Shown here: in pieces, positions 2 through 58,080 of the stretch
Layout: each line of letters opens with the position of its first letter
How positions within the stretch are numbered: the first letter of the stretch is position 1
Source of the DNA: Owenia fusiformis
Lineage: Eukaryota; Annelida; Polychaeta; Sabellida; Oweniidae
NCBI GenBank assembly: GCA_903813345.2
Contig: CAIIXF020000005.1
Span: 6,823,375 to 6,887,374, forward strand
Reading direction: 5' to 3'
Length of the DNA stretch: 64,000 nucleotides
Program-made: the position numbers and the translations under genes
Notes under the pieces: generated by a model
Database searches by the model: none
Told to the model about the DNA's origin: nothing
The model's input: the letters and a program-made list of their open reading frames with translations, nothing else

Positions 2-1283
2 ATGGATGACGATGGATTTCAATCGGCGCTGGATGATTTTGATAATTTTGTGAGTAATTATGAAACCACCAGGCGAGAGAAGCCGAGGGAAACTACTCAA
101 GATGGCCATGAATTGCTACGAGAATATAATGACAGAAAAGGTGGTAAAACTAGTTCTACATCAGTATTCTCAGATTACAACAGCTCCACGTTTGAGTCTG
201 ATAAATCTAAAAGGAAATCCCAATGTGATCGACCTTCACTACTTGGACGACATACAGAATTTCTGAGTGTATTTGACAGTGAATCAGATGATGACTATGA
301 AGATGCGCGTAGTTTTCTAAGAGGAGATAATCGCACTGATAATGAGAAAGCCTCTTCCATTCGCTACCAGAAATATGGAACAGCAAAGCTTGATTCTAAA
401 GGCAATGACTGGAGAGCAGACAAAAGCTACACCGATCCACTCAAGAAAGACAGACCAACATCAAAGTATAAAACGGACTCTTTAGATGAATATAAAACTA
501 GTAGTTTAAAATCAGATAGAAATTATGGTGATAAGTATACGAAAGACAAACCATCCACAAGGTATAAGGCTGATCCTCCAGATGCTAGCAAAGGTGATGA
601 AGGTATGTTTTTTAAAGCTAAGCGCAATTCTTCCCAGTTTAATGCTAATCCTACTAGTCGCAACAGCTTGCTTGATGAATTGTTTAGTAAACGCTCCAGC
701 TTTGGTAGAGAGTTTGATACCTTTGAGGAGGAAGCCAAAAGGCATTGGGATTCGCTCAAAAAACGTGACTTCCTTGATGATGATGATGAACATGAGTGGC
801 CATCTTGGACCAAACATGGTGGTTCAGCATCATTTGACTTTGGTCGTCCCGGGAGATATGATACTCCAGATGAAAATAAAGCAAAGCGAGGGAGCAGACA
901 TTATAGCTATAGTGATGAAATAGAGTCTGAGTACTCAAAATATGAACCTCGGGAAACGTCAACTGAATATAGCCCCAGAACAGAAAGACATTCAGAGTAT
1001 GTTCCTGCCGGGCATGGATATAGCCGCTGTGATACTGATTCTAAAGATGATACGCGTAAAACAGATATTCCTTACGACAATACCAAGCAGTATTCAAGAT
1101 TTGCTCAAAGAGAAAAAATGCATCAAGATTCAGATAGTAGTTCACGTAACACTGCTCAAAGTAAAAGTGAAGCAAAGCCTGAAAGGAAACGACAGACAAT
1201 AACAGAACGTTATAAAGAGTGGTACAAAGAAAATGATACAGAAACTGATACACCTGGTATAATAGCAAGAGATATAGAAACAG
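2..1283 (+). CDS. RASSF1: RASSF exon 1: long disordered N-terminal exon
   Basis: The frame opens with ATG at base 2 and runs to a strong donor CAG|GTAGGT at 1284. It encodes 427 residues rich in Asp, Ser, Lys, Arg and Tyr with no hydrophobic or globular segment; there is an acidic patch (FLDDDDEHEWPSW, near residues 257-269) and many SxY/KYK-type repeats, typical of an intrinsically disordered tail. The donor is phase 1, exactly what the exon 2 acceptor needs (ACA G|AT TGC, Thr-Asp-Cys), which is the main reason to join it to the RASSF gene. I do not recognise this sequence in any named family. It could instead be the end of an upstream gene, or the ATG could be internal to an exon that continues left of the window. 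Confidence 0.65.
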
Positions 1284-4200: not shown

Positions 4201-7200
4201 GTATTATTTTGCATAAATATGATTATGTATTAATATCAAATATGCATTATTAGGGAGATTTGAACATTTTTTCCTATTTTTCAATTTGAATCCTGAATAA
4301 CTTCACCAATTCATAAAATTTTACAGATCTTTTTGGAGATATTGTATTTGACATTGTAAGGAATAGATTGGTAGGTCAATTGTACACATTGCTTGAAGTT
4401 TTGTCACCTTATAAAAATCTGATTCTCCATTTGACATGAAAACGATATATTTTGTCATACTCAGTGTTAAACAATTACTACTAGACTCTTTGTATCAGGG
4501 TATACTGTATTATGACTTGTGAATTTTACTCTAGAAGTTTTATATAACTTATTACTTTTAGATATATGATATTATTGAAATAGTGTGGGTGACTCATTAC
4601 AAAGGTGTCTTATGATAATTGGAAACATTTGTTATTCCATCTAAGAAATTTAGGTGGATATTGAGAAAGCCTCCATCTGTCCGTCTGTCTATCTATCTCT
4701 CTGTCCAGACAATAACTCAAATATCATCGTTTGCTATACATTGTAGTTATCTAGTTTAAAAGGAGTAGGTGTTGTAAAGTCATACATTTTCTTTATCAGT
4801 AATTAAACAGTTTATTAACTTTTTTAACACATTCTTTGGGTCTAAAATACTGTAGTTTAGAAATAAGTTAAAGAAATCTAAAGGCAATGAATTTCGAAAT
4901 CTTTCTCATAACACATCAATGAAATTATACCACATGCTGTTTTGGCATAATCCGTAGACCAAAAATGCCACTATGACGTAAGGAATATGCTGGTTTAACA
5001 GTATGATCTTTCATCGAGAAACTTTTATTTTTTCTAATTTGGAGTTATCAAACTTGTGGCGAATATATCATTTATATCTGTGTTGATATTTAATGACAGT
5101 CACAACTAATAATCTAGATTATAAGATTTCATCTTTATTAGAATTATACATGTCAATATATCCATTTGACATACAACATCCATGTAACTTTACACAACTT
5201 TTCAAATTGTTCAAATTTTGATACCGACAGAACCATACCAAGTACGACTTTGTGCAAAAGATTTAACCATATATTGAAAAAGTTATATGAACCTGAAAAT
5301 AATGTGAACTAATCAGGAAGTCATTAACGTTACTGATCTACGGAACTGCCTTAATGAATGTTATTACTTTCTCACATCAGATAAGCTGAATTCCAAGAAT
5401 ATGTCTAATAATATCAGAGCATGTTTCTTATGAAACAGATACATGTAATGAGTATCAAAATATTAATCAAAGAATAATGAAGTTATATTTTGCATATTGA
5501 CGTATGTATTATGGCAACTAGTAGTTAGATCAACTTTCAAAGACAATATTTCTTCATCAGATGTCCATATCCTTGTATTTGACACTCAAGGCAACTTTCT
5601 CTTTCAGATCTCAAGACTGACAAGAAATTAGATGTCATGGTTTAGGTTTATCATGATGATGTCCATACAAATATTGACATCAGCTGCAAAGGGGCTGAAG
5701 CTGCTTGAGCTATCTATTTTGAACTAATGAAAAGTCACACTCAAAGCCTTTTATCAGATTCTTCCAGGGTATTGCTAGTTTGAAATTAGAAAGGTGTGAT
5801 GAATGGTATCTATCAACCATCTGTAGAGCAATCAATTTATTTTGGGTAGAATTATCAGTACTTTGTGCCATCTATCAATTATAGTATTGTATAAGTTACT
5901 TGATCAAACAATGATTGGGTTCAAATAACCCAATCATTGTTTGATCATGATCATTAAATAGCATTTAATGGTTATCAGGAGTTTTGTGTTGATAAATTGC
6001 TGTTCCACAGGATTTCATGATTAAATATCTTCAATGATATCAAGTCAAAATCTTGATATTATTGCATTTATGGTTGTACCATACCAAGGGCTGTCCTGGA
6101 AATCAAGTGCGAGGGGGGTGCAAAATATTCAGTACTTGTGCAAAAAAATGTTGGGCTCTGATTTAGAAATTCTGGGGCCAATTTCTTAAAATAAGGCCCA
6201 AAATGAAAATATAATGCCCAGTCATGTAAGTTTGTAATATCAATTGCCCAGTTTATGTGGGGCTAGGAGCAGATTTTTTGGGCATCATTTTTTCGGGACG
6301 TACTCAGCCATGCGTTTTTCACTTTTAAGTTTAAAGAAATGTATCAACCATTACTGTGTTTTTGCAGATTGCCAATATACTTGTCACCAGAAATGTCGAG
6401 AACTTGTGACGTTAGATTGTCGAGCATCTCCAGACAGAAAGTCTCCTGAGAAGAGCTCTTCAAATACAGAAGAAACGTCACTAAATGGGGATGGCACCAA
6501 AGAGAAAAGTCCATTACATGTGGTATGTATAAAAGTACAGAAAACCCTTTTCAGTAGAACATCTCTGTGAATAGAAAACATCCATTTCGCAAAACTTGAT
6601 GTACAGTGAACCTCTGTTCATTGAACTCCTCCAGGTAGAACATCATTTTGAGGCACTAACATAAAGTTGTTCTGTTTACAAAGGTCTTACTGTATTGTAG
6701 TTTTTATGAGGAAATGTGCATGCTACATATGAGTGTATACAACTGTGCGGATGTAACTTGGTATTGTGACACTGTTATTCTAAGAGTTTTATATACCTCA
6801 TAACATACACTACACACACATCCTCTAGCTGGATACGTCTATTTTCCGAGTTAATTCATCAATCATGGATCACAACTTGGTATTGGACTGGTTGCCAACA
6901 CCTCTTGAGACACTGAGGATGATCCCTTGGGGTAGGGGTCAGTCATAGGTAAAAGAGGCTAATTTATGATACAAGAATAGTCTAGTATCAAGACCATTTA
7001 TCCACCCCACCTCCTTCCTTCCTTTCTATCACAAGATAGAGCAAATTGAGTTATAGAGTATGACTAATACAAGTGCACTCTAGTATTGAGGCACATTTTA
7101 GTCCAGTATAAATAGATGGCATGTTGGTTCAAAATACCTTTTATACCACATGAATGTTCCAATGCACCCTGAATGTCATAGCCTAGAATATTAGCTCTAG

Positions 7201-10200: not shown

Positions 10201-13200
10201 TCTCACCGAACAAAGTTCGAGTTGGGATATAGAGTAGCCGTTCGTCCTTTGGTCCATCTGTTTACGTATCTGGAATTTTATATGCTGATGCTAGAGAGCA
10301 AAGAACCTCCTTTGATAGATTGATGCCGAGAGGTTCATCTTTATATGCAGATAGTGTCATCTTTGAGTTTTCTGGTATTTTCCCAATCATGCTGATATCT
10401 TATAGGGTTGGACATATGCTGGAGAAAGAATTTCCTAAATGGCCTTTTCTGTGATAATTTGTATGGACCAGTTATCAGATTATGCATTATATGATTCAAA
10501 TCTGCAATTGCAAAACTGTTGCTATACATGCATAGAACCATTGCTCAAAGTAGGAACTTTCAAGGTAATTGCTGAATTCAAAATGGCTACCATTCTTAGA
10601 AACATGTAATTTTAGATAACTCAGGTATTGATTTGTATTGTATTGATTTTTATTGATATCAGATTTGGTCTAAATTTTGTGCGCTCAGGTGCCCTGACAA
10701 GAAGCTTATTATATGAATAATATGAGTCACATGTCAAACAATAATCATGGGCTGGAAACGCCAGATTCTAGTAAAGTACCAGAGACTACCTTTTAGTAAG
10801 AGACATCATGAATTTTATATAATTTTTTCACAGTATGATCACAATCCCACAATGGCCATAAATCAGTTCTTCTGCAGGAAATTTGTTTGAAACCAGTCCT
10901 GAGCTATATTGAGTTAAAAAAGCACAGACATCCTGCCTACACTCGGAAAGATTATCTCAAATTTATGTGTCTCTTTGTTCATCAAAAATATTCCATGGTA
11001 AAATGCAGGAGCAGATCAGTTGTTTTGGCGCTTTACCAAATATATTTTTGAATATTTATATTTTTTTTAAATAAAATGTACATGATGTTTTTTCAGTTTA
11101 TCTCAAAATTCAAAAATATTTGTCTTTTTATTTGAAAAATATAACTTAAAATATAACCGTTTAGTCTGGGTTTTGTTTTGTTATGAGTAGGAAAAAACAA
11201 TGCTGCCTGGTTATTTCTGCCATGAAATGTTCGAAATGAGAAATGATTCGATAAAGTATGACTTATTCGGTGAGATATGCCACTCCGTGGAGTTGCTGTT
11301 TTTCTTGTTGTTGTTCTGTAGTTGTATGCTTGCTTTGTTGATTTTGCTTCAATGTTGTGTTTTGTTTGCCACAGGATGAGGACCATTTTGCCTTCTACAG
11401 TACCGCACGTGAAAGCCTTCCAGGGATGAGACCCATACCATTGAGACCTGATCCTTCCCTTTCAACACAAAGTAACAAGATAGAGGTGACTGGCTTATTT
11501 CCTACTTATACCTTCTCTTACACTATAGATAGCATTCTTTTTGTCTAATGTATTTCTAATGAAATAGGAAATTGAATAATGTCCCCCGTAGTGTCCTGAA
11601 AAACAGATGATAAATAATCTTATCAGGTGATTACCTGGACAAAATATATCAATGTCATTCTTGTATTACATATCTAAAATCACATAACGTTTTTGCATAT
11701 CAGATATCGACATGATTTAGTGAATGATGATCTAATTTGTCAATTATTAACCTGGATTTTTTTTATTATCATGGGATAAAAGTATTATATAATATGCATT
11801 TCAAAAGCCAGATTAGGAAATTCATTTACTGAAAAAGTCTGTGAATCAAAGAATTCTCTTATGGATTAGATTTGTTACATTGCATCTATTACTTATTGTT
11901 CCATTCCATGTTCATATTATACATAGCAACGACCTTGAGATCTTGAGGATTTGAAGTCAACAGGAAAAAAATTGAAATGATTAAAAAAAGGTTTCACTAA
12001 TTGTTCTACTTTCATAATGCAATGTGTGGCCAAGGTTTATATATTATCACTTACAAGTTCAGGCTTTTCATTTTTCTTTGAATTTTATTGACTATAGTTA
12101 GTAGTAGCCATGACTAGGGCAAATGACTAATGACTACAAATGACTAGTTTTGAAGCGATATCTTAATGACCCTAGTTGTTGTCTCTCATGGGCTTTTGAA
12201 TTTGAATTAAATGGCAGCTACTCGTGAAGGTAATTGCAATTCTGATTACGTATCTAACCTTGATCAAGCTATTCTGATTGGACAGTGCTCCGTCAAAGTA
12301 TCTCCTATTCAAAGAGTGTAGTTGAAGCTCTGTTTTGAAGAAGTGAAATTACTATTGAAAAGGGTAGGTAGTGTAGTGTATAACATGGTTTGGATTTTTA
12401 TGCATGAATTCGTACAGTATTTTCTGCTGTGATTATTACACTGTGTACTGTTCATTGGATCTGACTGTTGATATTAATTAATCACATTCAATTAAATGAT
12501 ATTCATTTGACAAAATGCAGTCAGTCGTTTCTGGCTATCTACTTGCTCTGTCTATTATTGTGTCTTGTCTGTCAGTTTTCCTGTCTGTCTGTCTGTCCTA
12601 AATGTCATTTCTGTCAATTTTCATATCTGTTAATCTTGCCTGTCTGCCAGTCTTTCCTAAATGTCAATCTGTCCGTCTGTCCTATTTGCCAAATATTTGT
12701 TATTGTCAATCTGTCTTATTTGCCATGTCCGTCAGTTATTATCACCTTTCGTATTGAACATATCTTAATCTTAAATGTGAACTTTTTTAAACTTCTTTTA
12801 GCTAGTAATTAGTTGTATAGATGTACTTATGTTATGGCATATGGCATCTCTTATGGTAATGTTTGATACCTTATCTCGCAAGATACCTATCCTCAGAGTA
12901 ATAGGAATTATAGACTGTTCATTAATTTGCAAAAAGGACATTAGGGACCTTCTAATCAAAGACAATTAGATCTGACACAAAGATTATAACCATTTATAAT
13001 AGCTCAGAGGCGCATTAGAGATTAGCTAGACATTATACAAACCTTGAACCTGAACATATATGTTCATGCTCACGTATTCATTTAACCCTTTCCTGACGTG
13101 AATAGAAGAGGAGAATGTTGGCTCAGTGACGGATAAGTAAGAGCAGTTTTTCGGTAAAAACTGGAAGTGACATATACCCCAGGACCTATATTTTAAATTT

Positions 13201-18015: not shown

Positions 18016-18046
<31 letters not shown>

Positions 18047-32121: not shown

Positions 32122-32127
32122 AATAAA
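32122..32127 (+). terminator. Poly(A) signal AATAAA of RASSF
   Basis: The first canonical AATAAA downstream of both possible stops (300 and 80 bp away). Confidence 0.5.
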
Positions 32128-37261: not shown

Positions 37262-37402
37262 CTTGTTATTCAGTTATTATGCTATTGTAGCCTTGCCCAA
37301 GTCGATATTTTTTTACTTATCTGATCTTGAATTATTACCGGCGGTCATAATAGAAATCAAGGTAAGTATAAGAGACCGACTTGGGCAAGGCTATGTTATT
37401 GT
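37262..37402. repeat. Inverted-repeat element (140 bp)
   Basis: TATTGTAGCCTTGCCCAAGTCG is mirrored by CGACTTGGGCAAGGCTATG about 100 bp on. Confidence 0.75.
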
Positions 37403-37454
37403 AATAACGTCCAAAATAAAAGCGTTTTACATAAACAACACCTGATATGTGGAC

Positions 37455-37862: not shown

Positions 37863-37871
37863 ATTTATATA

Positions 37872-38884: not shown

Positions 38885-38984
38885 TTAAGTGTGCTATTCG
38901 TAATTTTGCTGAAATCTATACAGCAAAGCTTTTTTTAAGATCCTAATTGCAATTTTAGTTATATCGTGTTTTATTTTTAAGACG

Positions 38985-39615: not shown

Positions 39616-39642
39616 AAGCGCACTTCTGAATAATAAATAAAA

Positions 39643-39707
39643 ATGGAGGATTTTGCGAAATTCAGTCAAAAACTAGAGATTGCTGACGAAGCAGTAAATC
39701 ATTGCAG
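39643..39707 (+). other. Possible short coding start (MEDFAKFSQKLEIADEAVNHC)
   Basis: An ATG after AATAAAA opens 21 codons that end at CAG|GTGAAC. A later acceptor (TTATTGCAG at about 40352) would add eight residues and stop. Length and lack of homology make this weak; it may be part of a transposon or chance. Confidence 0.15.
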
Positions 39708-41894: not shown

Positions 41895-42012
41895 GTCTAC
41901 AAGTGGTGACATATTTTTATAGTCTCTAACTTTTTGTGGCAGCATTCTGTGGTTGGCGTTCGGCGCCTGTAACAAATGCCAGGGACGACATTTTGCATGT
42001 TAATGCCTTGTT
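41895..42012 (+). repeat. Dispersed repeat family A, copy 6
   Basis: ACAAGTGGTGACATATTTTT, GGCGCCTGTAACAAATGCC and ACATTTTGCATGTTAATGCC; one of the best preserved copies. Confidence 0.8.
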
Positions 42013-42104
42013 AAAATATGTTGCTGTCACTGTCACTAGCAAAGATGTCATAAAATCGTAACGAGGAAATCATTTTATTACTATTGGATTTTTGTTTTCA
42101 GGAA

Positions 42105-42310
42105 TACACTCATGTTTATTTACACGAATAAAGGATCTAGTGCGCCCTCCATTATGATCTTCCCATGAACAAAAATAAATTCATCTGAATTTTCGAAATG
42201 AATATACTGCTTTTATTATTACATTTATATGTACACTAGTATCCTGTTGACCTATATTCAGCACTGTATTGATGAATGGGCCACTTATTAGGGCCAATAT
42301 TCAATCATAA
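42105..42310 (-). repeat. Reverse copy of the 26840-27045 segment
   Basis: GATCTAGTGCGCCCTCCATT, ATGAATATACTGCTTTTATT and ACACTAGTATCCTGTTGACC are the reverse complement of stretches in the 26529-27080 element. A further half copy lies at 42855-42905. Confidence 0.7.
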
Positions 42311-42559
42311 AGTGTACAGGGGTAGAGATGCCAAATCAGGAAGTATTTTTGTGTCTGTCAAAATCCATTTGCATCCTACACATCCCTACATCTTATCCAA
42401 ATATGTTATGAATTAATGAAACATAACAGTACAATCTTTGGATTTACAAAGTTATATGGCATTTCATAAGTGTAAAAGTTGCTTTTGAAGCATTTTTCTA
42501 TAGCCATTTTGTAAGAAAAAATGATGAAAAAATGTATAATATTTTCATTTGAAGTATCA

Positions 42560-42655
42560 CCTGAATCGATTGCAAACTTTATATTTGCATATCTGATGTG
42601 ATATACCAGTTGTGTCATATTGTGAAATTATTTAATTTGCAATCGATTCAGGTCA
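42560..42655. repeat. Inverted repeat, ~20-bp arms
   Basis: CCTGAATCGATTGCAAA and TTTGCAATCGATTCAGG, 60 bp apart. Confidence 0.8.
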
Positions 42656-42972
42656 TAGTGTATTTTAAGTATTTTTGTGAAAATCAATAGAAACCAATGA
42701 CCTTCATTGGAATCTGATGATATCAACATCTCGATGAAACACATACACCCTTGCTGAACTCAATGACCTCAACCTCAGTCCATGTGGGTCCAAATGCTTA
42801 GATATTTTCCAAAGTATTATGTGACATTGTGTTCTTTATGTTACACCTAAAATGATTCATTTTGTTCATGGGGAAATCATAATGGAAAGTGCACTAGATC
42901 CTTTTGTCCAAATTTACATAAAAAGTAAAAAGCGCACAGAAGATATACAGTGGCTGTAAAAAATACTTACGT

Positions 42973-43205
42973 TCAAGGGGCGGATCTGAAAATCAAGAGT
43001 AGGGGGTCCTAAATCTGAAAATTTGAGCCCAGTTTATAAAAACAGGCTCAAAATTAAAATAAATCATGCTCAGTAATGCCGAGTTGTTACCTTAATTGCT
43101 CAATTTATGTGGAGAGGGAAGATTTTTTGCCCTATACGTTTTTTTGGCCCTCACTTTTTGGGGCCCTCTAAAGGGGGAGGGTCGGGCCCCTGTCCTCCGC
43201 CAGAT
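42973..43205 (+). repeat. Dispersed repeat family D, copy 2
   Basis: AAGGGGCGGATCTGAAAATC start; matches 6088-6305 over most of its length. Confidence 0.55.
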
Positions 43206-44769
43206 CGACCGTTGCGTTTTACCTTATGTATGATACAACACGCATATTCAATAATAGGGTCCTCCGCCCTTGTTATTTTTCTTAAATCAATGATAGTATG
43301 TTTTACATACCGAGCGGAGGTAGTCATTTATATCATTTATAAAAACATGAGTGGTTTCCAAATTAATTTCAGGAGCCATCTTTTGAATAAACGTGGAATC
43401 CATTGACAAATGATTAAAAAACTAACGCAGACATCTATTGAGTGTATTCGAAAAAATAAGTAAACCCAGAATACTTGGGTCAGGTTAGTATACTTCGGCA
43501 AGAATCAGAATAGATGGGTAGCCAAGAATACTTGGGCCTTCACACACGTTCATCATTGTCTTTATTAATGTAATATCCTTCAACAGGTACAATGCGATTT
43601 AATTAAAGGGCAAACTAAATTCCTGCTGTTCATAAATTGTAAATCTTATAAATATAATTAAAGGTTGGTTGGTTGCGTGGGATGGGTTGGGTTTGTGGGT
43701 CGGTCGGTTTAGCCATACCATACATGTGATGACACATTTACACCTAGCAACTAGGCATGACCCCCCCCCCTCGATTTTTCGATAGTACATTGCACTTTTT
43801 TGTACACCCCGCTATGATGCCAATAAAATGAAATTCTTCAAATAATGATAGTTTTCCTATTCTAAAAGTACTGTAGAAAATCCATTGAGTGATCATTATT
43901 GCCCTGTTTGAGAGATAATCATTTAGCAGATTTGATTCCCTTTCCAACATGCTTTATTTCATGAAAATCAAGCCACTATTGAATATTTTATGAATTTCTA
44001 AAAGTAAAATACAGTTTATCGCCACGAATTCGTACCTTTGCATTCGTTTGACTTAGCTTCTAAAAGAAAGCTTCGCCTTTGGTAGTTTATAACTAGTCGA
44101 CGCCGGGTAAGTACTCGCGATTTTCGTTCTCTTCGTGAGAAAAACTGTTTTTTGCATATTCCTGATTTTTGTTCTTTGGTAAACGAACTATGATAAAAGA
44201 CCTTTCCAATTTTCAGATGATTTTTATCCTCTCCCAATTTTTCAATTTCACTATTTCGAGTTATATATCGTTTGTTTGTCTTACTTAATCACTGATTGTT
44301 ATTCATATCTACAAGTACATCTTGAAATATGAATGCTAAAGACGAAAACAAGTTGAACTGGAAATTGTTTTTAAACAGAGCGTTCCATTGATCTCAATGG
44401 ATTTTCGCGATACCTCAGATACTTGCTATCTTTGAAAGTTCAAAGTTTTTTTTGAAAGATTATTCTTTTTTGGAAATGCATTTTTGCACCAAAAATATTT
44501 TTTCGGAAGAAAGACAACAATTTATCACAAAATGTCAAAAGATAACACCCCCTAGGTTTACCTTCTTCTAAGGCCACTGTATCTATTGGCTAGAGACTCG
44601 AGTGACCCTAGGTCACGTCGACCTCAATTTGAATTGCTTTCTGAAGGGGTAATTGAACAAGGTTTACAAAAGTACCAACATTATTGAAATCAGACAAATA
44701 ATAAAGATCGCAGAAGGCAGTCCAAATGATCCCACACTTGCGACTTAGTGTTATAAAAAAGATATGGTG

Positions 44770-45075
44770 TCTTCCCATTTCGCCCCTTCCCACTTTGCCC
44801 CTTCCCATTTCGCCCCTCATTTATACCCATTTGGCCCCTTCCCATTTCGTCCCTTCCCATTTTGCCCCTTTCCCAAATTGCCCCTTTCCCATTTCGCCCC
44901 GTCCCATTATGCCCCCTTCCCATTTCGCCCCTCATTCCCCCTTCACCCCTTCCCAATTGGCCCCTTTTTTCGCCCCTCATTTATTCCCATTTCGCCCCTT
45001 CCCAATTGGCCCCTTTCCCATTTCGCCACTCATTTATTCCCATTTCTCCCTTCCCCGTTCGCCCCTTTCCCTAAA
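44770..45075 (+). repeat. Minisatellite CCCCTTCCCATTTCG, left arm
   Basis: About twenty 13-17 bp units of CCCCTTCCCATTTCG and variants (CCCAATTGG, CTCATTTATTCCC). It produces artefact Pro/Phe/His-rich frames on every strand. Confidence 0.95.
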
Positions 45076-45195
45076 TTGTAATAAAATGCCGTGATGTAGG
45101 CTACAGTATCTGACGTCGTATCATTATGTTCTAATTTCACAGCCAAATAATCTGGTAAAATTGATAAAAGATCATCGGATATTTCATTCAATAAA

Positions 45196-45492
45196 TGAGG
45201 GGCGAAATGGGAAGGGGCGAAATGGAAATGGGCCAATTGGGAAGGGGCGAAATGGGAATAAATGAGGGGCAAAATGGGAAGGGGCAAGATGGGAAGGGGC
45301 GAAATGGGAAAGGGGCAAAATGGGACTGAATGAGTGGCAAAATGGGAAGGGGCGAAATGGGAAAGGGGTGAAATGGCAAAGGGGCAAAATGGGAAAGGGG
45401 CGAAATGGGCAAGGGGCCAATTGGGAAGGGGCAAAATGGGAATAAATGTGGGGCGAAGTGACGAAATGGGAAGGGGCGAAATAGGAATAAAC
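45196..45492 (-). repeat. Same minisatellite inverted, right arm
   Basis: GGGGCGAAATGGGAA units with the same variants (CCAATTGGGAA, AATAAATGAG) in opposite orientation, 120 bp from the left arm, so the two can fold on each other. Confidence 0.95.
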
Positions 45493-46104
45493 CAAAAGAT
45501 ATAGATTTAGTATATGATACATCTTGACAAAATCATATTTAATTTCCAACAGGATATGCTACGACAAAAGTACTTCGTTTAAGCTCTCTTTATACTTGCA
45601 CAAATACTGGCATAGACAAAAATACAAGTTGAATTCAAGTTACAAATGAAATAAACTCCATTAATTCCAAATGTTTAATTTATCTTACAAACAGATTAAT
45701 CATTATCAACAACAGGGCAACACGAAGATATTGCTTTATAAGTCCAGAAAGAACACAAGATTATCTGAAATGAAATTTATAGCAGACAACAGACAGCTGT
45801 TGGAGAATGTGAATGGCCCTTTTATGTATTAACATATTATTTAATGTGTGTATGCTCTAAAAGACTTGGATTAACCCAATTTTATTTCCAATCCCATGGT
45901 ATTGGCTGGATATGACAAATACAATGCAGATTAAGGGGGATATGTTTTATGGATAATCATTTTCAATAAACTGTATTTAATTTAGAGCTTTTTAAACTAC
46001 AAAACCTTGAATACGCGATTATAATTTGTGCTTAAATAAATTTGAATTTATGGTGACTGCAATTCTAATTGTGTATGGCTAGGTCAGAGCTGGACTAGCA
46101 AACA

Positions 46105-46673
46105 CAAAGTGCAGTAAAACCTGTTTGATCCAAACACCCTTTTGAACAGAAAGTGCAGTAAAACCTGTTTGATCCAAACACCCTTTTGAACAGAAAGTGC
46201 AGTAAAACCTGTTTGATCCAAACACCCTTTTGAACAGAAAGTGCAGTAAAACCTGTTTGATCCAAACACCCTTTTGAACAGAAAGTGCAGTAAAACCTGT
46301 TTGATCCAAACACCCTTTTGAACAGAAAGTGCAGTAAAACCTGATTGATCCAAACACCCTTTTGAACAGAAAGTGCAGTAAAACCTGTTTGATCCAAACA
46401 CCCTTTTGAACACAAAGTGCAGTAAAACCTGATTGACCCAAACACCCTTTTGAACAGAAAATGCAGTAAAACCTGATTGATCCAAACACCCTTTTGAACA
46501 GAAAATGCAGTAAAACCTGATTGATCCAAACACCCTTTTGAACAGAAAATGCAGTAAAACCTGTTTGATCCAAACACCCTTTTGAACAGAAAATGCAGTA
46601 AAACCTGATTGATCCAAACACCCTTTTGAACAGAAAGTGCAGTAAAACCTGTTTAATCCAAACACCCTTTTGA
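46105..46673. repeat. 44-bp satellite, 13 copies
   Basis: Unit GCAGTAAAACCTGTTTGATC then CAAACACCCTTTTGAACAGAAAGT. Starts fall every 44 bp from 46111 to 46639. All three minus-strand frames stay open (160-211 residues) because the unit has no stop in that direction; these are not genes. The flank AGTGTTCGGATTAGCAGGTG resembles the unit, so it probably grew from a dispersed AAACCTGT-type repeat. Confidence 0.95.
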
Positions 46674-46907
46674 CCTCCCAAAAGTGTTCGGATTAGCAGG
46701 TGTTCACATTTCAATGTTTTCTAACATGGTAGTCAATGGAGGATTAAATTTGAAACAAGAAAAATTGTTTACATGATGAGGTGTTCCGATTAGAGAGGTG
46801 ATCAAATACACAGGTTTTAGTATAGATGAAACTCTTTGAAGGATGCAAAGTAAAAGTATTGAAAATGGCAAGATCTAATACAACTTTATTTTATTTTCTA
46901 TCTGGAG

Positions 46908-46965
46908 TAGGAACCTGGGCCTAATATAAGAACCTGGGCCTAATGTAGGAACCTGGGCCTAATGG
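46908..46965 (+). repeat. Three copies of AGGAACCTGGGCCTAAT
   Basis: Short tandem of 17-19 bp units. Confidence 0.9.
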
Positions 46966-47364
46966 TAAATGGATCTACAAACATAACATAGCTATGTAAC
47001 TGAAACAGATAAAATTGATTAATCAATTTCATTTTTATTGAATCATTTAGCCATTCTCGTCTGATTACAATTCTGATTATGTCAGCCTGATCTCCATCTG
47101 AATTTAAATTAAACATTCCATTTCTACAATTACAACCCAATTGGTCTGACATACCTGAGTATAGTAAAATACATATTTACAACTTATAAAATACAGTTTA
47201 GGAAACAGGCAATGGAAAACATGTTGGAACTTGGAAGTTCCCCCAGGGGTTCATCGTATATAGAATTCGAAGAGGGTCCGAGGCTGAACCCACAGATATC
47301 AATATGTTCCCATACCAATCTGCCAAATTTCAATGTGTTCCCATACCAACCAAAATAATGCCCA

Positions 47365-47505
47365 AAAGCCATACCAAATGTCTAAATATAAGATCAATTC
47401 CATACTAAATGTCCAAATATAAGACCAATCCCATACTAAATGTCCAAATATAGGACCAATGCCATACCAAATGTCCAGATATAAGATCAATGCCATACCA
47501 AATAA
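47365..47505 (+). repeat. ~37-bp tandem, 4 copies
   Basis: Units of CATACCAAATGTCCAAATAT followed by AAGATCAATGC and variants. Confidence 0.8.
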
Positions 47506-47810
47506 CAAGACCCAAAGAACAAGGCAAATATTTGAGGAAAATGATCCAAAAAAACTCAAATTAAGGATATGTGTTACTAAATATATATACAGTGAACCCC
47601 TGGCAAGTTTCACCTCAAGAATTGATTCATCTCAAGCTGTTATATAGACAGTATCAATGATTATATGTACCAGTACTTTTACATACATTAACACACTTTT
47701 TAGTCCCAGATGGCCCTTGGGTAAATACATAGAAAAATCTAGAAACTAAGGAATGTGCCATTTGATATTGGTTTACCTTGAACCTAAGATATTTTTTTCG
47801 AAACAAATGC

Positions 47811-47855
47811 ACTGGTCCTCACCTAGTTACCCTGACGATACATCAGTGTATCATG
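47811..47855. repeat. Solo end of the CTCACCTAGTTAC MITE family
   Basis: ACTGGTCCTCACCTAGTTAC and CCTGACGATACATCAG match the ends of the element at 49487-49855. Confidence 0.65.
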
Positions 47856-49184
47856 GCGGAACAACTTCCGGAATTTGAATTTGGTACAATATTTTTATTT
47901 CTCAACCTTTTTGACCCATAATATGTTTTGTTTTCTCTAAAGTCCACGATACTTATTTTTGGACCTGCAAATTGAGAGGGAAGTATAATACTGAACATTT
48001 TTCCATACCCTTGTACCAATTTTGCAATGTGGGCACATTTTCTGATTAATTAGTCAAAATGAGGTCCAAGTCAAAATTGAGTTTTCAAAACTTCCAGATA
48101 TGAGATTGATTTTATTTATCCTGAAATGCCAATATAATTTTTTACAATATTCAGTTCCATTTTTCAGAAAAAGTTTTAAAGGTTTAAATAATGGTTCACC
48201 CCAAGCTGACTTCAAGGCCTTCAAGAATAATTATAACGTGGAATAACATGTGATGTTGATCGGACTAGAATGACTACAGAGATAAGAACATTCCAAATAA
48301 TTTAATATACTGCAACACATATGACCTTAACTTCCTCATGGCACTTCCTAATCTATAGCCTAATGGTGATGTAATAATTACTGCAACAATATGGATTCAT
48401 TGTTAAACATGGCAATACAATAAAATATCCTCTCGAAACAAACATGATGAAACTGTGTTTAAATATTACCACTACATGTGTACTTTAGTGACTTTAAGGT
48501 TAAATTCACATTTTAACTGTGAATTACATGCAGTGGGAAATCGTAATTATACATGTACCGTAAAAATACAGTAGACCAGATACGTGGAAATGCATAAAAT
48601 GCTTTAAACCATTATCACTTAATACTGTACAGTTATACATACTGGTATGAGAAGTATCCAGCAAAATAATAATACCTATACTGATATCAAGTAATAAATT
48701 TTTCCTGTGTTTACTGCATAATAATTGATGAGATCAGATCATGTGTACTCAGAAGTTTTTGTTTCACCATTTATACAAATCAAATGATTTATTAATACCT
48801 ATCAATAATTCCATATAGAATAAAGTGCCTTGTAACAGTATTCCTGGTGAATGATTTATCACTGCAATTAATTCTTTTCGTGGATTGGGAGTGTTCTATA
48901 ATTGAGTTTGAAAGTAGAACATGGAAGGATACATTGATATTCCAGTGAGAAATTGATACAAGCTCAGGGACTTCAGAATCATAACCCTCCTAACCTCATT
49001 CTAATTTGTCAGAGTCTCTCTTTATATAACCTTTTATTCCAAGGATAGAACAGACTGTAGATCCAACTATGTACTAACCCCTTTCTTCAACTGTTATCAA
49101 ATAATGTATAACAGTCTTCTACAAATAAAACACATAATCACGAGTACAATTTGCTGTTAAGTGAAAATTGTCATATTATGATAA

Positions 49185-49275
49185 ATGAGGTGAAAATTGT
49201 GTAATATCATGAATGAGGTGAAAATTGTGTAATATCATGAATGAGGTGAAAATTGTGTAATATATCATGAATGAG
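49185..49275 (+). repeat. 28-bp tandem, 3 copies
   Basis: Unit GAGGTGAAAATTGTGTAATA then TCATGAAT. Confidence 0.9.
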
Positions 49276-49486
49276 TAATTGTGAAGTGATAGGCTTTCAA
49301 CAAGTAATTTCTTGCAATAAGACAGGTTAAGCTACAAATCAATATACCAGTACAAACAGTGAACCTGAAAGTGTGTGTTCATGCTCACGTGTCCCTTTAA
49401 GTTCTCTGTTATTAGAACACGTGTGTAAGCCAGAGTACATAAATATTGAATAAAGTTGCTGATTTAACCTACATAATGGCTTAGTC

Positions 49487-49855
49487 ACTGGTACTCACCT
49501 AGTTACACTGACATATCGTCAAGCTTGAAGATATTTTTATTTCTCGATTCTATACCACTTATATGTCAAGTTGTGGACAATAATTTGACTCAAAGTTAAG
49601 GATGATAGTCTAGCTTGTGAATATGCAGGCGGTTCTTATTTGGTACATTAACGAAGACACAATTTACATATTTAGTCCCTCGCTTTTGTTACGTTGACGA
49701 TCTTCATGCATATTGCCAATGTTATTATCCACAACTTAACTTATGAGTGATGATGAATCAAGAAATAAAAATATCTAACCAGAAAACGAAGCCCTGAAGT
49801 TCTTTCATCTTGTTATGCTGATGTATCGTCAGCGTAACTAGGTGAGTAGCAGTGT
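49487..49855. mobile_element. 370-bp MITE with CTCACCTAGTTAC ends
   Basis: Left CACTGGTACTCACCTAGTTA and right TAACTAGGTGAGTAGCAGTG are inverted; inner CTGACATATCGTCA and TGATGTATCGTCAGCG also pair. Confidence 0.75.
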
Positions 49856-50397
49856 TAGTGCACAATGAGGTATGTGCACTTAATTCTCTACAAATAAATC
49901 CCTGTACATTTTACGCTGATTTTTATTGTATAAGGTAGACTAATCTGATGCCATTGGTCTGTGTGTGCATTGAACTTCAGGTTCATGCTCTGCTGAATAG
50001 CTGTAGCTTAACCTCATTATTAAGAGTTTTTTTTATAATTTGACACATATAAGAGCTATAAATCATCATACACTTGAGAGCGAGAGAACACAATGTTAAG
50101 ATGTTCATGAAAATTGTTACATTTTCTCCAATGTTTACAGGATCTAATATAATTCTAAATTCTATCACCATTTTTAAAATTGAATTGAAGCCCAAAAATG
50201 AAAATAGCAAATATGATGAGAAACATTGATTAATTTCCTAAATGAAGTGAATTAAATTTTCATCAGAGCAATATTTAGATGTTACCCAATTCAACAGGAA
50301 GTATAAAAAACTAATTTGCGGTTTACTGTCTATACAAGTCTTCAAGCCATTGACAGCTGTCAGAGGAATATCCAGCTTCACTCTGGTTGACTGATAT

Positions 50398-50606
50398 CAG
50401 GCCCGTAGCCAGGATTTGTCAAGGGGGGGTTCAGTTTTCAAAAATGTCCAGGGGGGGTCACATTTGACAATTTTGGCCCAAATATGACTAAAATCACTTG
50501 AGAAGTGCTCAAAATGGTGAAAAACTGCATGATTTTGAAAGAATTTTTGGCCAGGGGGGGGTTCGCCCGAACCCTGCAAACCCCCCCCCCCCTGGCTACG
50601 GGCCTG
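50398..50606. mobile_element. 209-bp MITE with CAGGCCCGTAGC ends, copy 2
   Basis: Perfect 15-bp inverted ends CAGGCCCGTAGCCAG / CTGGCTACGGGCCTG, flanked by CTGATAT on both sides (50391-50397, 50607-50613). It lies 320 bp beyond the TUSC2 stop codon, so possibly in its 3' UTR. Confidence 0.9.
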
Positions 50607-50928
50607 CTGATATTAATGATTTATGACCCACAAATGACTTGCAAAACAAACAGTAGACTACAGTATTCCAGTGGGTGAAAATGATCTAGGGTACATGAGA
50701 AACCCTTGGAATTTGTATTTTATACCATTGGAAAGAACATATATTCTATCACACTGCATTCTGGGTTCACTTCATAAAAGCAGGTATACAGTTTCATTGC
50801 ACATTTAAAACTCATCTTGGAGTTAATTCATATCATTCTTGTGCCTGCTAATTATCCTCTCTGATGTTGATTATTTTGTGATGCCGTGTCTCTGATGTCA
50901 CTGTCTTGGTTATTAAATGATTGTGATG

Positions 50929-51009
50929 TCATCTCACTGATACTGGCGCCTCACAGAGAACAATCGGTAAATTACAGTTCAGTCGTGGAATAGCCAATTC
51001 AATTTCACC
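50929..51009 (-). CDS. TUSC2: TUSC2 exon 3 (C-terminus)
   Basis: Acceptor TTATTTTTTCAG|GGTGAA, 26 codons and TGA. It keeps the spacing of human 'G-x4-HPRIHVDFPVIL' but as IPRLNCNLPIVL, so His, Val-Asp and Phe are replaced, and it ends five residues later than human (CEAPVSVR). A distant AATAAA on this strand lies at 49922-49927; no closer signal was seen. Confidence 0.9.
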   Translation of the reverse strand, partial: GEIELAIPRLNCNLPIVLCEAPVSVR

Positions 51010-54000: not shown

Positions 54001-57000
54001 GAACGAGTTAGCAAAAATATAGCTCTCACACCAAACAAGTTGCCACTGCGTTCTTCAAAACTGGTCTTAAACTGTGTGCGAATGGAATGAACGTAGCTGC
54101 AACTTTCTAAGGTCTATTTACAAACTTTATGAACGTTCTCAGACGGGAATGTGATTTTAGAATTTGACCATGTTGACCTTCTAGACTAAGCGTTCTACCA
54201 CGTTGCACTCCGACGTGGTGCGACCTGAACGAACTGCGAACGAGATGGACGTATTGAAGACTGTTTAAGAACGAAGAAGCTAATTATTTCAGACATATTT
54301 CCCGACCACAGCCAGATTGAGCCCGTTTGACGACGTTTTCGTAGGACTGGCAAGAACGGGTAAGAACTAGTTTGGTGTGATAGGGGGGTTACCATTTCAA
54401 TATTATGATGTTAACATACATGGCTTGACACATGAATGACACCTCTTATAATTGTCTACTTATACGATCTTTTGTAATTATGATCTACAAGTGTATGTCA
54501 AACGAGCAGACTACTTATCAGTTAATTAAAGATAAGATCAGCTTGAAAGCACCAGTATTCACATGTATCCAGTCACATCCACCAGTTTTTTCTCAACAGA
54601 TTTTAGATTTTCTAGTCATTCTGTTATTTTCCTTGGCCAATATCATATTTTCCCTCGGAATAAAATTCATATTCCATCCCTCCCATTAAATAACCTCTAA
54701 TTACTGGGAATATTTTCCACTGTACTATAACGGGCACTTTGGTAATTCTGCTGATCACTTTTCAATTCAAATTTGTACAGGTTTCAAATTTGGGGCATCT
54801 TGGATGTTAGGTGGCTTTTTTCGATTTTTTGATAATCTAGTCATCGTGATTTTCACAGCTTGCACATCGAGTTCCCACATCGCAAGCCATGTGACTTGTG
54901 TGATTTGTGATGTGGGAACTCAGTGTGTGAATGGAAAAGTTTGGTTTGATCCAACTGGTGGTTCGCGACTGAAGAAACAATATTCGTGTTGTGAGAATAT
55001 GGTTCAGGAAGGAACGAGGATAGCAAGGATGGAAATGATGACTGCCTGAGTGGAAGTGTAGGAGGCCTGAACAACAATTTACAATGTGAAGAGAGCAGAG
55101 ACAAGTTGAGAGCAACTTTCGAAAAATTTGTTACAACTTAAAATGATTTATAGAGTAATGAAAACACAGAATGAACTCCTCTGCAAAGGGCTGATGTGAA
55201 AAAGTCAGTCCAACCCAGTGGGGATCCAACCCACGACCCCTCACTTTCCGGGTGCTTGCTCTACTACTGACGCTAATATAAGAACAGACTGGCTTTTCTA
55301 CATCAACATTACATATATAGCATTGCAGGCTTGCAGCCATGTCTTAGATGCCCAGTTTCCTGGACCCCATATATGTTACCCATCTTTCCAGGTTGTCGAT
55401 CATTCTATTCATGATGAGTAAATATTTGAAATGATATCACATACCTCTGGGATAAGATTGTGTTTTTTCTTTTTCATTCTGTATCGTCTTGACCTTCTAT
55501 CCAACACTTCTTCATAGAATTCATGAGCCAAATCACCATCTTCATCAAAATACATGGAGCTAAAATTAAAAGTAAATGAGCCAAATCACCATCTTCATCA
55601 AAATACATGGAGTTAAAATTAAATGTATTATTTACAGGGTATCTCAATTGGTGATCTCCATGATACAGCATGATGACTCGGTGTAATTCAATTGGTTTCA
55701 TGAATGTGGAAGTTCAAAATGGGGGAACAGGAGTAATAAGTTTGACATTATACTCAGAATAAAAATGAGTAAAACATATGGCATAACAGATATATATCTA
55801 TCAAAATGATATAAGCAACAATTTTAGGTTGAGCATTGGAATATGTTACAGTTTGTATTAGCAAATTTCTTCAAAATACCATCAAAAGATTATCTAACTA
55901 TTGGTATTTACTGTTTACTGTAGTAGGTCAAATATTCAGATTGGACAATAAATAAATGAGTTGCAGATGTGAGGATTTTCCATGTAAAAAATAAGAGAAT
56001 TTCAAGAGGCCATATATCAGTGGATGAAAATATACAAAATGTAAAACATACACAATACACTCTAGGGGATATGTATCTTGATATTATAAGAAACTATGTG
56101 CTTTCAAACCACCATAGTCTATGGTTTGGAAATGGTGATAGAAATTCAACTACTCATTTATTTACATGTATGGTCCAAACTGTAAACGAAAATAAAACAG
56201 TCATTTGGGGCTAATGGCAGTTTAGGGTAAGTCTTCTGCATATGTTTCCTTTTGCAATATGGTTCTTTGATGGCTTATTTTTTAGATTCAAAGTTGTCAA
56301 TGAAATTACGAATCTGACTGTATAGTCTGTTGAACTTAAAAAAAAGAAATCTAAAGACCATTGTGCAATAATATTTAGAAAAAAATATTGATACTAAACA
56401 TGAATGACATTTGTATTTATCCCGTTCCCGGACTATGGTCCTGTGAACATCTCAATCTTTTGCCTGTGCGATTACAACATGGGAGAATTTTTTACTGATC
56501 TTACACTTCAGATACCTACTTCAATAGATTCCTTGGTAATTTAGCATTCTTTTCGTGTAGTTGAATCCACAATTGTCTGGGTTTATCGGCAGAACGAAGA
56601 CATTTTCGTTTTTGATCGCAATATTTGCGTGTAACATTTAACTTATTTCAACCGTCAAATTCCTCCATATTGGTACTTCCGGGCTACATCCGGGACAGCC
56701 AAACGGGGGATTCCCCTTTTAAATCCAACCGCCATTTTGAAAAGTGATGGAATCTCTCTCGATGAAAAAGAGAAAATGTTCCTGTTCTGCCGATATACCC
56801 AGACAATCGGCGGTTCCTATATATTAGAAGTTACATCTTGAGTTCTATAATGCATTGAGGTAGGTATCTTAAGTGTAAGGGGCGTAGATAATTGTCCCAA
56901 GTTGTAATCGTACAGGCAAATGAATGCGATCAGTGCAGGACTATAGTCCGGGAACGGGATAAATTTGTATATTTCAGATCATTTAGTTTTTTGTGCAATA

Positions 57001-58080
57001 AGCCTGTACCCTCCTGTAATTTGAGGTTTCTCAGCCATGTTATATTTGCAGAATAACATGGCAGAAAAGCATCAAAATATAATACATGTAGGTTACAGAT
57101 TTCATATGCCAATTAACAAGTAATCCAAGATTTACAAAGTCATTCATGTGTAATATGAATATGTTTTCCCATTTATTGTTGCACAATAGTCTTTAGTTTT
57201 CTTTAGATGGCACTTCATGCTCAACACTGTGAGGTATACAGGCAAGATTGGTGTACCTAGACCAAGTGTTCTTCCGACTAGTGTTGTCGCGATGTGCCAT
57301 AATCGTACATCGGCAATTTTCAGTAGTAAACATCGATGCACATCGCGATGTACATCAAGAAAAAGTCTGAGAAAAGTGCTCTGAAATACCGAACGCTAAT
57401 GCACTAAAATACCGAACATCCGGTTCATCCGGGAACTTCTAGTAACGGTGAAATGAAAGTAAAGTAATTTTTTTAGATTAATGTTTCATTTCGACTAGCT
57501 AAAACAGTTTTAAAGCGAAAGAATATCAGAAAACATTGGAAAATGAAATAAGACATGAGAAAGGTAAGCGATTTGCGTCAAAATAAGATAAGGGTGATTT
57601 TTAGCGAATTATTTTTTTTTAAAACATCGATGTTTTGTTTCAGACATCGATGCATCGCCAGAATCAGCTTTGGCGATATACGATGTATCGATAATCGCGA
57701 CAACGCTACTTCCGACCATACAGGAAAAATACTAATCAAGGATACCATATGGCTATAGGGTCAAATTTCTTACCCACAGGAACTTGTATCGCTATCAAGT
57801 CCTTTATGACGCTCCTCTATGATGTTCTCTGGATGTCCTAACACTCGATACATCATTCATGTCATGAGTGTGAGGACCCCAAAGGTACCACATATGGATT
57901 ACCAATAAGGACTTGATAAAATTTCCTGAGTTATTACCTGGTCCGTTTATACACAAATGGTGTCGCAGTCCCATATCTCGAAAGAACCAATTCAGGACTT
58001 GTCTCCCCGGTATTATATCCAAACATATTGGATATTGGGGACACCATCTTTTTCACCATGCTGGATCCGCTCTGCCCCAT
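50929..58080 (-). CDS. TUSC2: TUSC2 (FUS1) tumour suppressor orthologue, whole spliced gene
   Basis: On the minus strand, exons 58080-57938, 55559-55445 and 51009-50929 join in phase (2, then 0) into 112 residues plus TGA; human TUSC2 has 110. Residue order: MGQSGS at the start (Gly2 myristoylation signal, as in human MGASGS), PFVYKRT (41-47; human PFVFTRR), SMYFDEDGDLAHEFYEE (49-65; human SMFYDEDGDLAHEFYEE), a basic linker ending KHNLIPE (human HKNLIPQ), and GEIELAIPRLNCNLPIVL (87-104; human GIVKLDHPRIHVDFPVIL). TUSC2 is known as a small myristoylated, largely mitochondrial regulator of calcium handling, apoptosis and immune-cell signalling. In human it is the direct neighbour of RASSF1. Confidence 0.95.
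51270..51345 (+). repeat. tRNA-like fragment (possible SINE)
   Basis: AGGTGATACAGGAGTAGCAT and CCCAAGTTAAATTTCCAGTG loosely fit A and B boxes. Confidence 0.35.
51637..51893. mobile_element. 255-bp MITE with TACAGGGTGTCC ends
   Basis: TACAGGGTGTCCAAAACAGG plus ACCAAAG is inverted as CTTTGGTCCTGGCTTTTTGG plus ACACTCTGTA; TA at the borders. Same end type as 22962 and 37872. Confidence 0.8.
52095..52548 (-). mobile_element. LINE remnant: reverse-transcriptase C-terminal zinc-binding tail
   Basis: The minus frame has LKSLQFKIMHRIYPTKVLLF, DELCNFCACKDTYEHFFIEC and a following conserved tail, the typical post-RT segment (zf-RVT) of non-LTR elements: Cys-x2-Cys, then E-H-F-F-x2-Cys. The open stretch extends upstream to about 52548 before a stop. 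Nothing of the RT core remains. Confidence 0.85.
52570..52745 (+). mobile_element. Second LINE remnant, opposite strand, frameshifted
   Basis: The plus frame has IELGRHLKPKPKPVNEHLCN and ICGILEDEQHFIMK (GRHxKPxxxPVNERxCxxC...EDExHF type tail of another non-LTR family). An upstream piece in another frame (CRFRLIPTSY) suggests a frameshift. Confidence 0.8.
52790..53585 (-). repeat. Dispersed repeat family B, reversed copy
   Basis: On the minus strand: ATACCAAATGAAGTTTAAGA start, CCATCTGTTCATCTGCC, AAAATGGCCACAATTTTTC and related modules. Interrupted around 53096-53230 by a GAACACCT-type repeat. Confidence 0.65.
53634..54386. mobile_element. 750-bp element with CTATCACACCAAAC ends
   Basis: Left CTATCACACCAAACTAGTTC and right GAACTAGTTTGGTGTGATAG-like end (AAGAACTAGTTTGGTGTGAT) are inverted. 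GGTTACC lies directly outside on both sides (53627-53633, 54387-54393). A further copy of the left end begins near 54027, so it is a partial tandem. Confidence 0.75.
54868..54922. repeat. Short hairpin
   Basis: GAGTTCCCACATC and GATGTGGGAACTC, about 27 bp apart. Confidence 0.8.
55195..55276 (-). repeat. tRNA-derived SINE head
   Basis: Minus strand: GTCAGTAGTAGAGCAAGCAC (A box) and GTGGGTTGGATCCCCACTGG (B box). The pairing GTGGG...CCCAC mimics a T arm. No acceptor stem. Confidence 0.6.
55445..55559 (-). CDS. TUSC2: TUSC2 exon 2 (DEDGDLAHEFYEE core)
   Basis: Acceptor CTTTTAATTTTAG|CTCC (phase 2) and donor CCAGAG|GTATGTG (phase 0). It encodes SMYFDEDGDLAHEFYEEV, the most conserved block of the TUSC2 family, then a strongly basic linker RRSRRYRMKKKKHNLIPE. 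The acidic DEDGD run has been discussed in the family as a calcium-related motif. Confidence 0.97.
55523..55628 (-). repeat. 53-bp tandem duplication over the TUSC2 exon 2 acceptor
   Basis: Unit 55523-55575 (functional) and unit 55576-55628 (upstream copy) share ATGAGCCAAATCACCATCTT and CATCAAAATACATGGAG on the + strand. In the upstream copy the acceptor reads TTTTAA|CTCC instead of TTTTAG|CTCC, so it cannot splice; if it did, the frame would be lost. Confidence 0.95.
56417..56962. mobile_element. 546-bp transposon (TTATCCCGTTCCCGG ends), 8-bp TSD
   Basis: Ends TTATCCCGTTCCCGGACTAT and ATAGTCCGGGAACGGGATAA, perfectly flanked by ATTTGTAT (56409-56416, 56963-56970). Sub-terminal GTGCGATTACAAC and GTTGTAATCGTAC also pair. 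The 8-bp target site suits hAT or P; no transposase. Confidence 0.9.
57279..57708. mobile_element. 430-bp hAT MITE, 8-bp TSD
   Basis: Ends TAGTGTTGTCGCGAT and ATCGCGACAACGCTA, flanked by CTTCCGAC on both sides (57271-57278, 57709-57716). The interior carries repeated ACATCGATG/CGATGCATCG motifs. Such TAGTGTTGTCGCGAT-type ends are typical of hAT. Confidence 0.92.
57938..58080 (-). CDS. TUSC2: TUSC2 exon 1 (start, myristoylation signal)
   Basis: ATG at 58080 begins MGQSGSSMVKKMVSPISNMF; Gly2 with Ser at position 6 fits an N-myristoylation signal, which is why this start is preferred. The exon continues to GTATPFVYKRT and ends AG|GTAATA (phase 2), completed to Ser by the first base of exon 2. 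Confidence 0.95.

What the first reader, a model, noticed from the sequence alone, without database searches (positions are those of the whole stretch)
2..58080. TUSC2 and RASSF1 are neighbours here, as at human 3p21.3
Both genes were identified from their own exons: SARAH/RA signatures for RASSF, and DEDGDLAHEFYEE with a myristoylation start for TUSC2. In human, TUSC2 and RASSF1 are adjacent on the same strand; here they are adjacent and tail-to-tail. Retention of the pair in a genome full of repeats implies an ancient bilaterian linkage or a shared regulatory constraint, with one local inversion.
Basis: partly seen in the sequence, partly recalled or inferred. Interest (0 to 1): 0.8.

Follow-up and report, generated by a model that had tools for sequence, protein, structure and literature searches.

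The report
TUSC2 and RASSF1-type genes, convergent neighbours
Two genes that sit side by side in a human tumour-suppressor cluster are also next-door neighbours in this animal genome, one of them flipped, most likely a leftover of very old chromosome structure rather than a new biological system.

Summary
TUSC2 (minus strand, 3 exons, 58080 down to 50929) and a RASSF1/3/5-type gene (plus strand, stop at 31820, 5' end about 12 kb before the window) have open spliced frames and are adjacent and tail-to-tail, with 19,108 bp and no recognised gene between the stop codons. TUSC2 has one match in the genome; the RASSF has C1, RA and SARAH domains. No N occurs in the window or in 110 kb of flanks. 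Of six other families of the human 3p21.31 block placed in this genome, four lie on the same chromosome C5, but 1.5 to 26.6 Mb away; NPRL2 and HYAL lie elsewhere. So C5 carries remains of the linkage group with scrambled order, and the pair is the tight remnant. Ancient linkage is the likeliest reading; "shared regulatory constraint" and "one local inversion" are not shown, because no third animal genome could be examined. The taxon is unnamed (it resembles the annelid Owenia fusiformis). New member of a known kind: a conserved gene pair. Side finding: tandem repeats duplicate or abut three splice acceptors of these genes.

The parts
6368..6522 (+). RASSF exon with the second half of the C1 domain; the first half is outside the window, ending at C5:6811462
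   Evidence: CAG before, GTATGT after; C1 E 1e-12 on the joined protein
11375..11485 (+). RASSF candidate exon, 111 bp, phase 0-0 (DEDHFAFYSTARESLPGM...), similar to the exon at 21743
   Evidence: local alignment score 65 against mean 19.8, maximum 33 in 500 shuffles
21743..21901 (+). RASSF exon, 159 bp, phase 0-0 (DDNDSGYATAKETLPGM...)
   Evidence: its end aligns with a RASSF5 chain
22313..22539 (+). RASSF exon before and into the RA domain (GVIRVHMSLIRP...TSFYLPKD)
23529..23641 (+). RASSF RA-domain exon; five bases separate it from a 33-bp x 15 tandem array (23030-23523)
29756..29874 (+). RASSF RA-domain exon (VIVRKLHDDEQPLKL...NDSGEIQ)
31644..31820 (+). RASSF last coding exon: SARAH domain and stop
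   Evidence: best PF16517 match of the genome, E 2.0e-9
31313..31677 (+). 118-bp x 3 tandem array that duplicates the SARAH-exon acceptor; TTCCAG before 31399, 31517 and 31644
31821..50928 (.). 19.1-kb intergenic stretch with no gene recognised; 20.8% repeated within the 174 kb read (window mean 20.7%)
50929..51009 (-). TUSC2 exon 3 (GEIELAIPRLNCNLPIVLCEAPVSVR and stop)
55445..55559 (-). TUSC2 exon 2 (SSMYFDEDGDLAHEFYEE...NLIPE)
55523..55627 (-). 53-bp x 2 tandem duplication over the TUSC2 exon-2 acceptor; the outer copy has AA in place of AG
57938..58080 (-). TUSC2 exon 1 with start codon and N-myristoylation motif (MGQSGS)

Best explanation
Two ordinary genes with open frames, TUSC2 and a RASSF1/3/5-type gene, have stayed neighbours since a common ancestor with vertebrates. 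Chromosome C5 descends in part from the linkage group that gave human 3p21.31. Its gene order was shuffled, so other members of the block are now Mb away or on other chromosomes, while this pair was not separated and one of the two was flipped in one of the lineages. Shown: gene identities, open frames, adjacency, orientation, excess of 3p21.31-block families on C5. Inferred: common descent of the adjacency, and the flip. No special force is needed for the persistence of one such pair.
For: Open spliced TUSC2 and RASSF frames; family matches; best PDB hits for RA, C1 and SARAH are RASSF5 chains, E 1.8e-22, 7.9e-13, 3.1e-8; one TUSC2 match; a RASSF2/4/6-like gene elsewhere, C9 (label by recall); no gene recognised between; no N in 174 kb. 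Other 3p21.31-block families: TMEM115 C5:8.37 Mb, CACNA2D C5:33.5 Mb, IFRD C5:2.07 Mb, RBM5/10-type OCRE gene C5:28.67 Mb; not on C5: NPRL2 C1, HYAL C10. 4 of 6 on 8.5% of the genome, binomial P 6.9e-4; without the OCRE gene 3 of 5, P 0.0054. Two given genes on C5 would be adjacent by chance with probability about 9e-4 if C5 has its share of 26,966 genes (gene number of Owenia, PMC9977687, passages).
Against: No third animal genome was examined. NPRL2 and HYAL, both in the human 120-kb list, are on other chromosomes; for the four tested members of that list the count is 2 of 4, P 0.039. ZMYND10, RASSF1's other human neighbour, was not recognised. OCRE has a second match on C10, and which one is RBM5-type was judged by recall. 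Families were hand-chosen; human positions of IFRD2 and RBM5 are recalled. PMC8851819 (passage) reports that the vertebrate ancestor inherited 70 microsyntenic blocks, fewer than the 110 to 124 of shuffled genomes, so a bilaterian block surviving in vertebrates is not the general rule.
Confidence: 0.75

Rival explanations
1. Chance re-meeting: both genes stayed on one ancestral chromosome, were separated, and became neighbours again by shuffling within it; the human adjacency is then independent.
For: C5 order is scrambled relative to the human block; orientation differs from human (human strand recalled); the gap is 19 kb.
Against: Probability for a given pair about 9e-4, a few times that if other neighbour pairs are counted.
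Confidence: 0.11
2. Cis-regulatory or co-expression constraint: the pair is held together because regulatory DNA of one lies in or near the other.
For: In human breast cancer RASSF1A and TUSC2 expression are reported to move together, and RASSF1A demethylation to raise TUSC2 and other 3p21.3 genes (PMC10177220, passage); microsyntenic blocks with coexpression are described (PMC8851819, passages).
Against: No regulatory element was identified, none was searchable; convergent genes, 19 kb between stops and about 70 kb from the first C1 exon to the TUSC2 ATG; the gap is as repeated as the window on average.
Confidence: 0.1
3. Assembly mis-join between the two genes.
For: The stretch between them holds minisatellites and repeats, and reads were not available.
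Against: No N in the window or in 110 kb of flanks, so any join is not a marked scaffold gap; a mis-join that recreates a human gene pair is improbable.
Confidence: 0.03

Closest known systems
Human 3p21.31 LUCA cluster (HYAL2, TUSC2, RASSF1, ZMYND10, NPRL2, CYB561D2, TMEM115, CACNA2D2, as listed in PMC9576590 and PMC6678546)
   Same: TUSC2 next to a RASSF of the C1-RA-SARAH type; TMEM115 and CACNA2D on the same chromosome
   Different: Convergent instead of same-strand (human TUSC2 strand recalled); NPRL2 and HYAL on other chromosomes; TMEM115 1.49 Mb and CACNA2D 26.6 Mb away; flanking ORFs here read like HMG-box, NF-YA, a GPCR and ethanolamine-kinase genes (by eye except the GPCR)
Ancient microsyntenic blocks and bilaterian ancestral linkage groups
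   Same: Neighbourhood of non-homologous genes kept, chromosome identity kept, order scrambled
   Different: Only human and this genome are compared, so block status is not established
TUSC2 family (PF15000)
   Same: Three exons, about 110 aa, MGxxxS start, DEDGDLAHEFYEE core
   Different: The Pfam match covers residues 36-106 only, so the N-terminal 35 residues lie outside it
RASSF1/3/5 family
   Same: C1, RA and SARAH domains in that order
   Different: Two similar phase 0-0 exons between C1 and RA and a triplicated SARAH-exon acceptor (whether human genes have either was not checked)

Membership tests
TUSC2 (PF15000) | Match to the family model over its curated cut-off | tested here: met
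   103 bits against 25, E 1.5e-29
[quoted passage not shown]
   MGQSGS by sequence; signal as stated in PMC9576590; the modification itself is not testable here
TUSC2 (PF15000) | Three coding exons, about 110 aa | tested here: met
   3 exons, 112 aa; human three exons, 110 aa
RASSF1/3/5 (classical RASSF) | RA domain followed by SARAH domain | tested here: met
   RA 3.4e-17, SARAH 4.4e-11
RASSF1/3/5 (classical RASSF) | C1 domain, as in RASSF1A and RASSF5 | tested here: met
   C1 E 1e-12; best PDB C1 hits are RASSF5/Nore1
RASSF1/3/5 (classical RASSF) | Placement in a tree of RASSF paralogues | not tested
   no tree built; assignment rests on domains and best PDB hits, and the PDB does not hold every paralogue
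Conserved bilaterian microsyntenic block | Adjacency shared by several lineages, more than in shuffled genomes | not testable with these tools
   no animal genome other than this one could be searched
Same ancestral linkage group as human 3p21.31 | Excess of block members on one chromosome | tested here: met
   4 of 6 families on C5, P 6.9e-4; 3 of 5 without OCRE, P 0.0054; 2 of 4 for the published 120-kb list alone, P 0.039; hand-chosen families, two human positions recalled
Same ancestral linkage group as human 3p21.31 | Conserved local order beyond the pair | tested here: not met
   TMEM115 1.49 Mb, IFRD 4.7 Mb, RBM5-type 21.8 Mb, CACNA2D 26.6 Mb away; flank ORFs read by eye are unrelated

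The most novel reading that the evidence does not exclude
The TUSC2/RASSF pair is a co-regulated unit older than the protostome-deuterostome split, held together by cis-regulatory DNA while the rest of the block scattered, so that the co-silencing of human 3p21.3 tumour suppressors exploits an ancestral regulatory domain.
Probability: 0.1. Interest if true: 0.7.

Novelty: new member of a known kind. Interest (0 to 1): 0.36.

Why it matters
It extends the adjacency of two well-studied human tumour-suppressor genes to what is probably a distant animal genome, and shows the pair together where other members of the block have scattered. If it recurs in other phyla, the human co-regulation of the two genes becomes testable as an ancestral trait. 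My searches of open-licence PubMed Central listed no paper that pairs TUSC2 with RASSF1 and synteny in an invertebrate (listings only: 4 papers, none holding TUSC2 together with synteny, none, none; one search listed one teleost non-coding-RNA review holding both TUSC2 and microsynteny, not opened). Subscription papers and supplements were not searchable.

Tried and rejected
Species: a COX1 search gave no match, so the mitochondrial genome is absent, withheld or missed. 498.26 Mb, 525 contigs, every match so far on contigs C1 to C12, and ten of those twelve lengths seen (31.9 to 62.2 Mb) recall Owenia fusiformis (505.8 Mb, 12 chromosome-scale scaffolds; PMC9977687, passages). A paper search on the exact figures listed 10 of 42 papers, all on other kinds of organism and matched by the generic terms. 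Likely, unproven.

ZMYND10: 30 MYND matches; 13 loci read (L012, L013-L024) gave 9 readable MYND peptides, none recognised as ZMYND10 by recall. Unresolved, not counted.

TBK1, a neighbour of human RASSF3/5 (recalled): matches on C5:36.8 Mb and on C9:24.9 Mb. Ambiguous, not counted. The PF16517 match at C5:26.55 Mb was not recognisable as a RASSF. The OCRE match on C10 reads like AGGF1, by recall, so not counted as RBM5-type.

KIN17 zinc-finger matches at 46101-46673 appear in all three minus frames of a 44-bp repeat and were treated as spurious, not tested further. Not scanned with Pfam: the minus strand of 1-31.8 kb, and two of three plus frames of 10.0-12.6 kb. The Irimia et al. microsynteny paper is not held.

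Full report
What was checked. The window is C5:6823375-6887374 of a 498,259,871-base genome in 525 contigs. It holds no N, nor do the 60 kb to its left and 50 kb to its right that were read.

TUSC2. A genome search with PF15000 gives one match, C5:6878819-6878935 minus, E 2.1e-11, inside the window. Exon 1 with its start codon at 58080, exon 2 and exon 3 (found with a recalled human C-terminus as seed) have GT-AG boundaries and matching phases and splice into an open 112-aa frame, E 1.5e-29 to PF15000 over residues 36-106. It starts MGQSGS, which fits the signal Met-Gly-X-X-X-Ser/Thr stated in PMC9576590 (passages). Human TUSC2 has three exons and 110 aa (passages).

RASSF. Four plus-strand exons, 22313-22539, 23529-23641, 29756-29874 and 31644-31820, join in one open frame to the stop. 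Three further exons upstream in the window, 6368-6522, 11375-11485 and 21743-21901, and one outside it, ending at C5:6811462, have consensus splice sites; two of them carry the halves of a C1 domain split by an intron. The joined protein has C1, RA and SARAH over their cut-offs, and its best PDB relatives for each are RASSF5 chains. A gene with RA and SARAH exons on C9:29.52 Mb reads like RASSF2/4/6 (label by recall). So the window gene is RASSF1/3/5-type by domains; no tree was built. The ORF at position 2 runs from C5:6823055 to window 1423, in the intron that splits the C1 domain; its window part has no Pfam match and it has a possible phase-1 donor. It may be an alternative first exon or something else.

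Arrangement. RASSF reads plus, TUSC2 minus, tail-to-tail, 19,108 bp between stop codons. Pfam scans of both strands over 31.8-51.0 kb show no gene, with the limit that a short exon can escape such a scan, as TUSC2 exon 3 did. 20.8% of this stretch is repeated within the 174 kb read, against 20.7% for the window. Outside the pair, ORFs read by eye (names by recall) look like NF-YA, an ANF-receptor-like protein and HMG-box exons to the left, and a GPCR (7tm_1 E 2.1e-18), two ethanolamine-kinase-like genes, a phytanoyl-dioxygenase-like exon and a GMC-oxidoreductase-like gene to the right. One minus frame of the piece with the HMG-like exons gave no Pfam match. I recognise none of these as a human 3p21.31 neighbour.

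Ancient linkage. PMC9576590 and PMC6678546 list the human genes as HYAL2, TUSC2, RASSF1, ZMYND10, NPRL2, CYB561D2, TMEM115, CACNA2D2 (passages); that the list is the map order, and the TUSC2 strand, are recalled. In this genome TMEM115 is at C5:8.37 Mb, CACNA2D at C5:33.5 Mb, IFRD at C5:2.07 Mb, an RBM5/10-type OCRE gene at C5:28.67 Mb; NPRL2 is a long open frame on C1 and HYAL a cluster on C10. Four of six lie on C5, 8.5% of the genome: P 6.9e-4. Without the OCRE gene, whose identity is by recall and which has a second match on C10, 3 of 5, P 0.0054. For the tested members of the published list alone, 2 of 4, P 0.039. Families were hand-chosen, IFRD2 and RBM5 positions in human are recalled, ZMYND10 was not recognised, TBK1 is ambiguous, CYB561D2 was not tested.

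Reading. The chromosome keeps part of the ancestral linkage group, local order is gone, and the pair remains. With a gene count like that of Owenia (26,966; PMC9977687, passages) two given genes on C5 would be adjacent by chance with probability about 9e-4. Retained adjacency is the best explanation, with one gene flipped in one lineage; which lineage is unknown. Conserved microsynteny is a known kind (PMC8851819, passages); the same paper reports that the vertebrate ancestor inherited fewer bilaterian-age blocks than shuffled genomes give, which speaks against taking survival for granted. A shared regulatory constraint is possible and untested; PMC10177220 (passage) reports that RASSF1A and TUSC2 expression move together in human breast cancer.

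Taxon. Size and 12 large contigs resemble Owenia fusiformis, unproven; COX1 gave no match. If the genome were a chordate's, the linkage would only be chordate-wide.

Tandem repeats at splice acceptors. Three of nine acceptors tested are duplicated in, or lie within ten bases of, a tandem array: the SARAH exon (118 bp x 3, three intact acceptors; use of the outer two gives an early stop), TUSC2 exon 2 (53 bp x 2, outer copy AA for AG) and the RA exon (33 bp x 15, five bases away). None of eight donors is. Chance of 3 or more of 9 acceptors is 0.025 given array coverage, 0.009 if only arrays of 90 bp or more count, and 0.13 if all 17 sites are taken together. Noted after the fact, so weak.

Noticed in passing
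31313-31677: 118-bp tandem array carries three intact SARAH-exon acceptors (exon starts 31399, 31517, 31644); the two outer ones would give truncated RASSF without SARAH.
   Followed up: partly
55523-55627: 53-bp tandem duplication over the TUSC2 exon-2 acceptor; the outer copy has AA for AG, leaving one usable acceptor.
   Followed up: partly
23030-23523: 33-bp x 15 minisatellite ends five bases before the RA exon, so the RA acceptor may sit in a decayed last copy.
   Followed up: partly
11375-11485 and 21743-21901: Two similar phase 0-0 RASSF exons, possibly duplicated and alternatively used.
   Followed up: partly
window 2-1423, continuing left to C5:6823055: Long charged ORF inside the intron that splits the RASSF C1 domain; no Pfam match for its window part, possible alternative first exon.
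   Followed up: partly
46101-46673: 44-bp x 13 minisatellite open in three minus frames; its translation matches the Pfam KIN17 zinc-finger model in all three.
   Followed up: no
about 52314-52514: Sub-threshold match to a reverse-transcriptase zinc-binding model (zf-RVT, E 2.5e-5, 25.3 bits against a cut-off of 27.5) on the minus strand in TUSC2 intron 2, a likely retroelement remnant.
   Followed up: no
G000:C1:22700867-22701970: NPRL2 matches fall in one 405-aa open frame over most of the model, as a retrocopy would show; this could explain its place on another chromosome.
   Followed up: no
L001, C5:6766435 and 6769478: A gag-like ORF region occurs twice in tandem, 3,043 bp apart, with the listed ORF translations alike; recent duplication or assembly effect.
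   Followed up: no
C10:7.67 Mb (L030) and C10:7.96 Mb: An AGGF1-like OCRE exon (by recall) lies 0.3 Mb from the hyaluronidase cluster.
   Followed up: no
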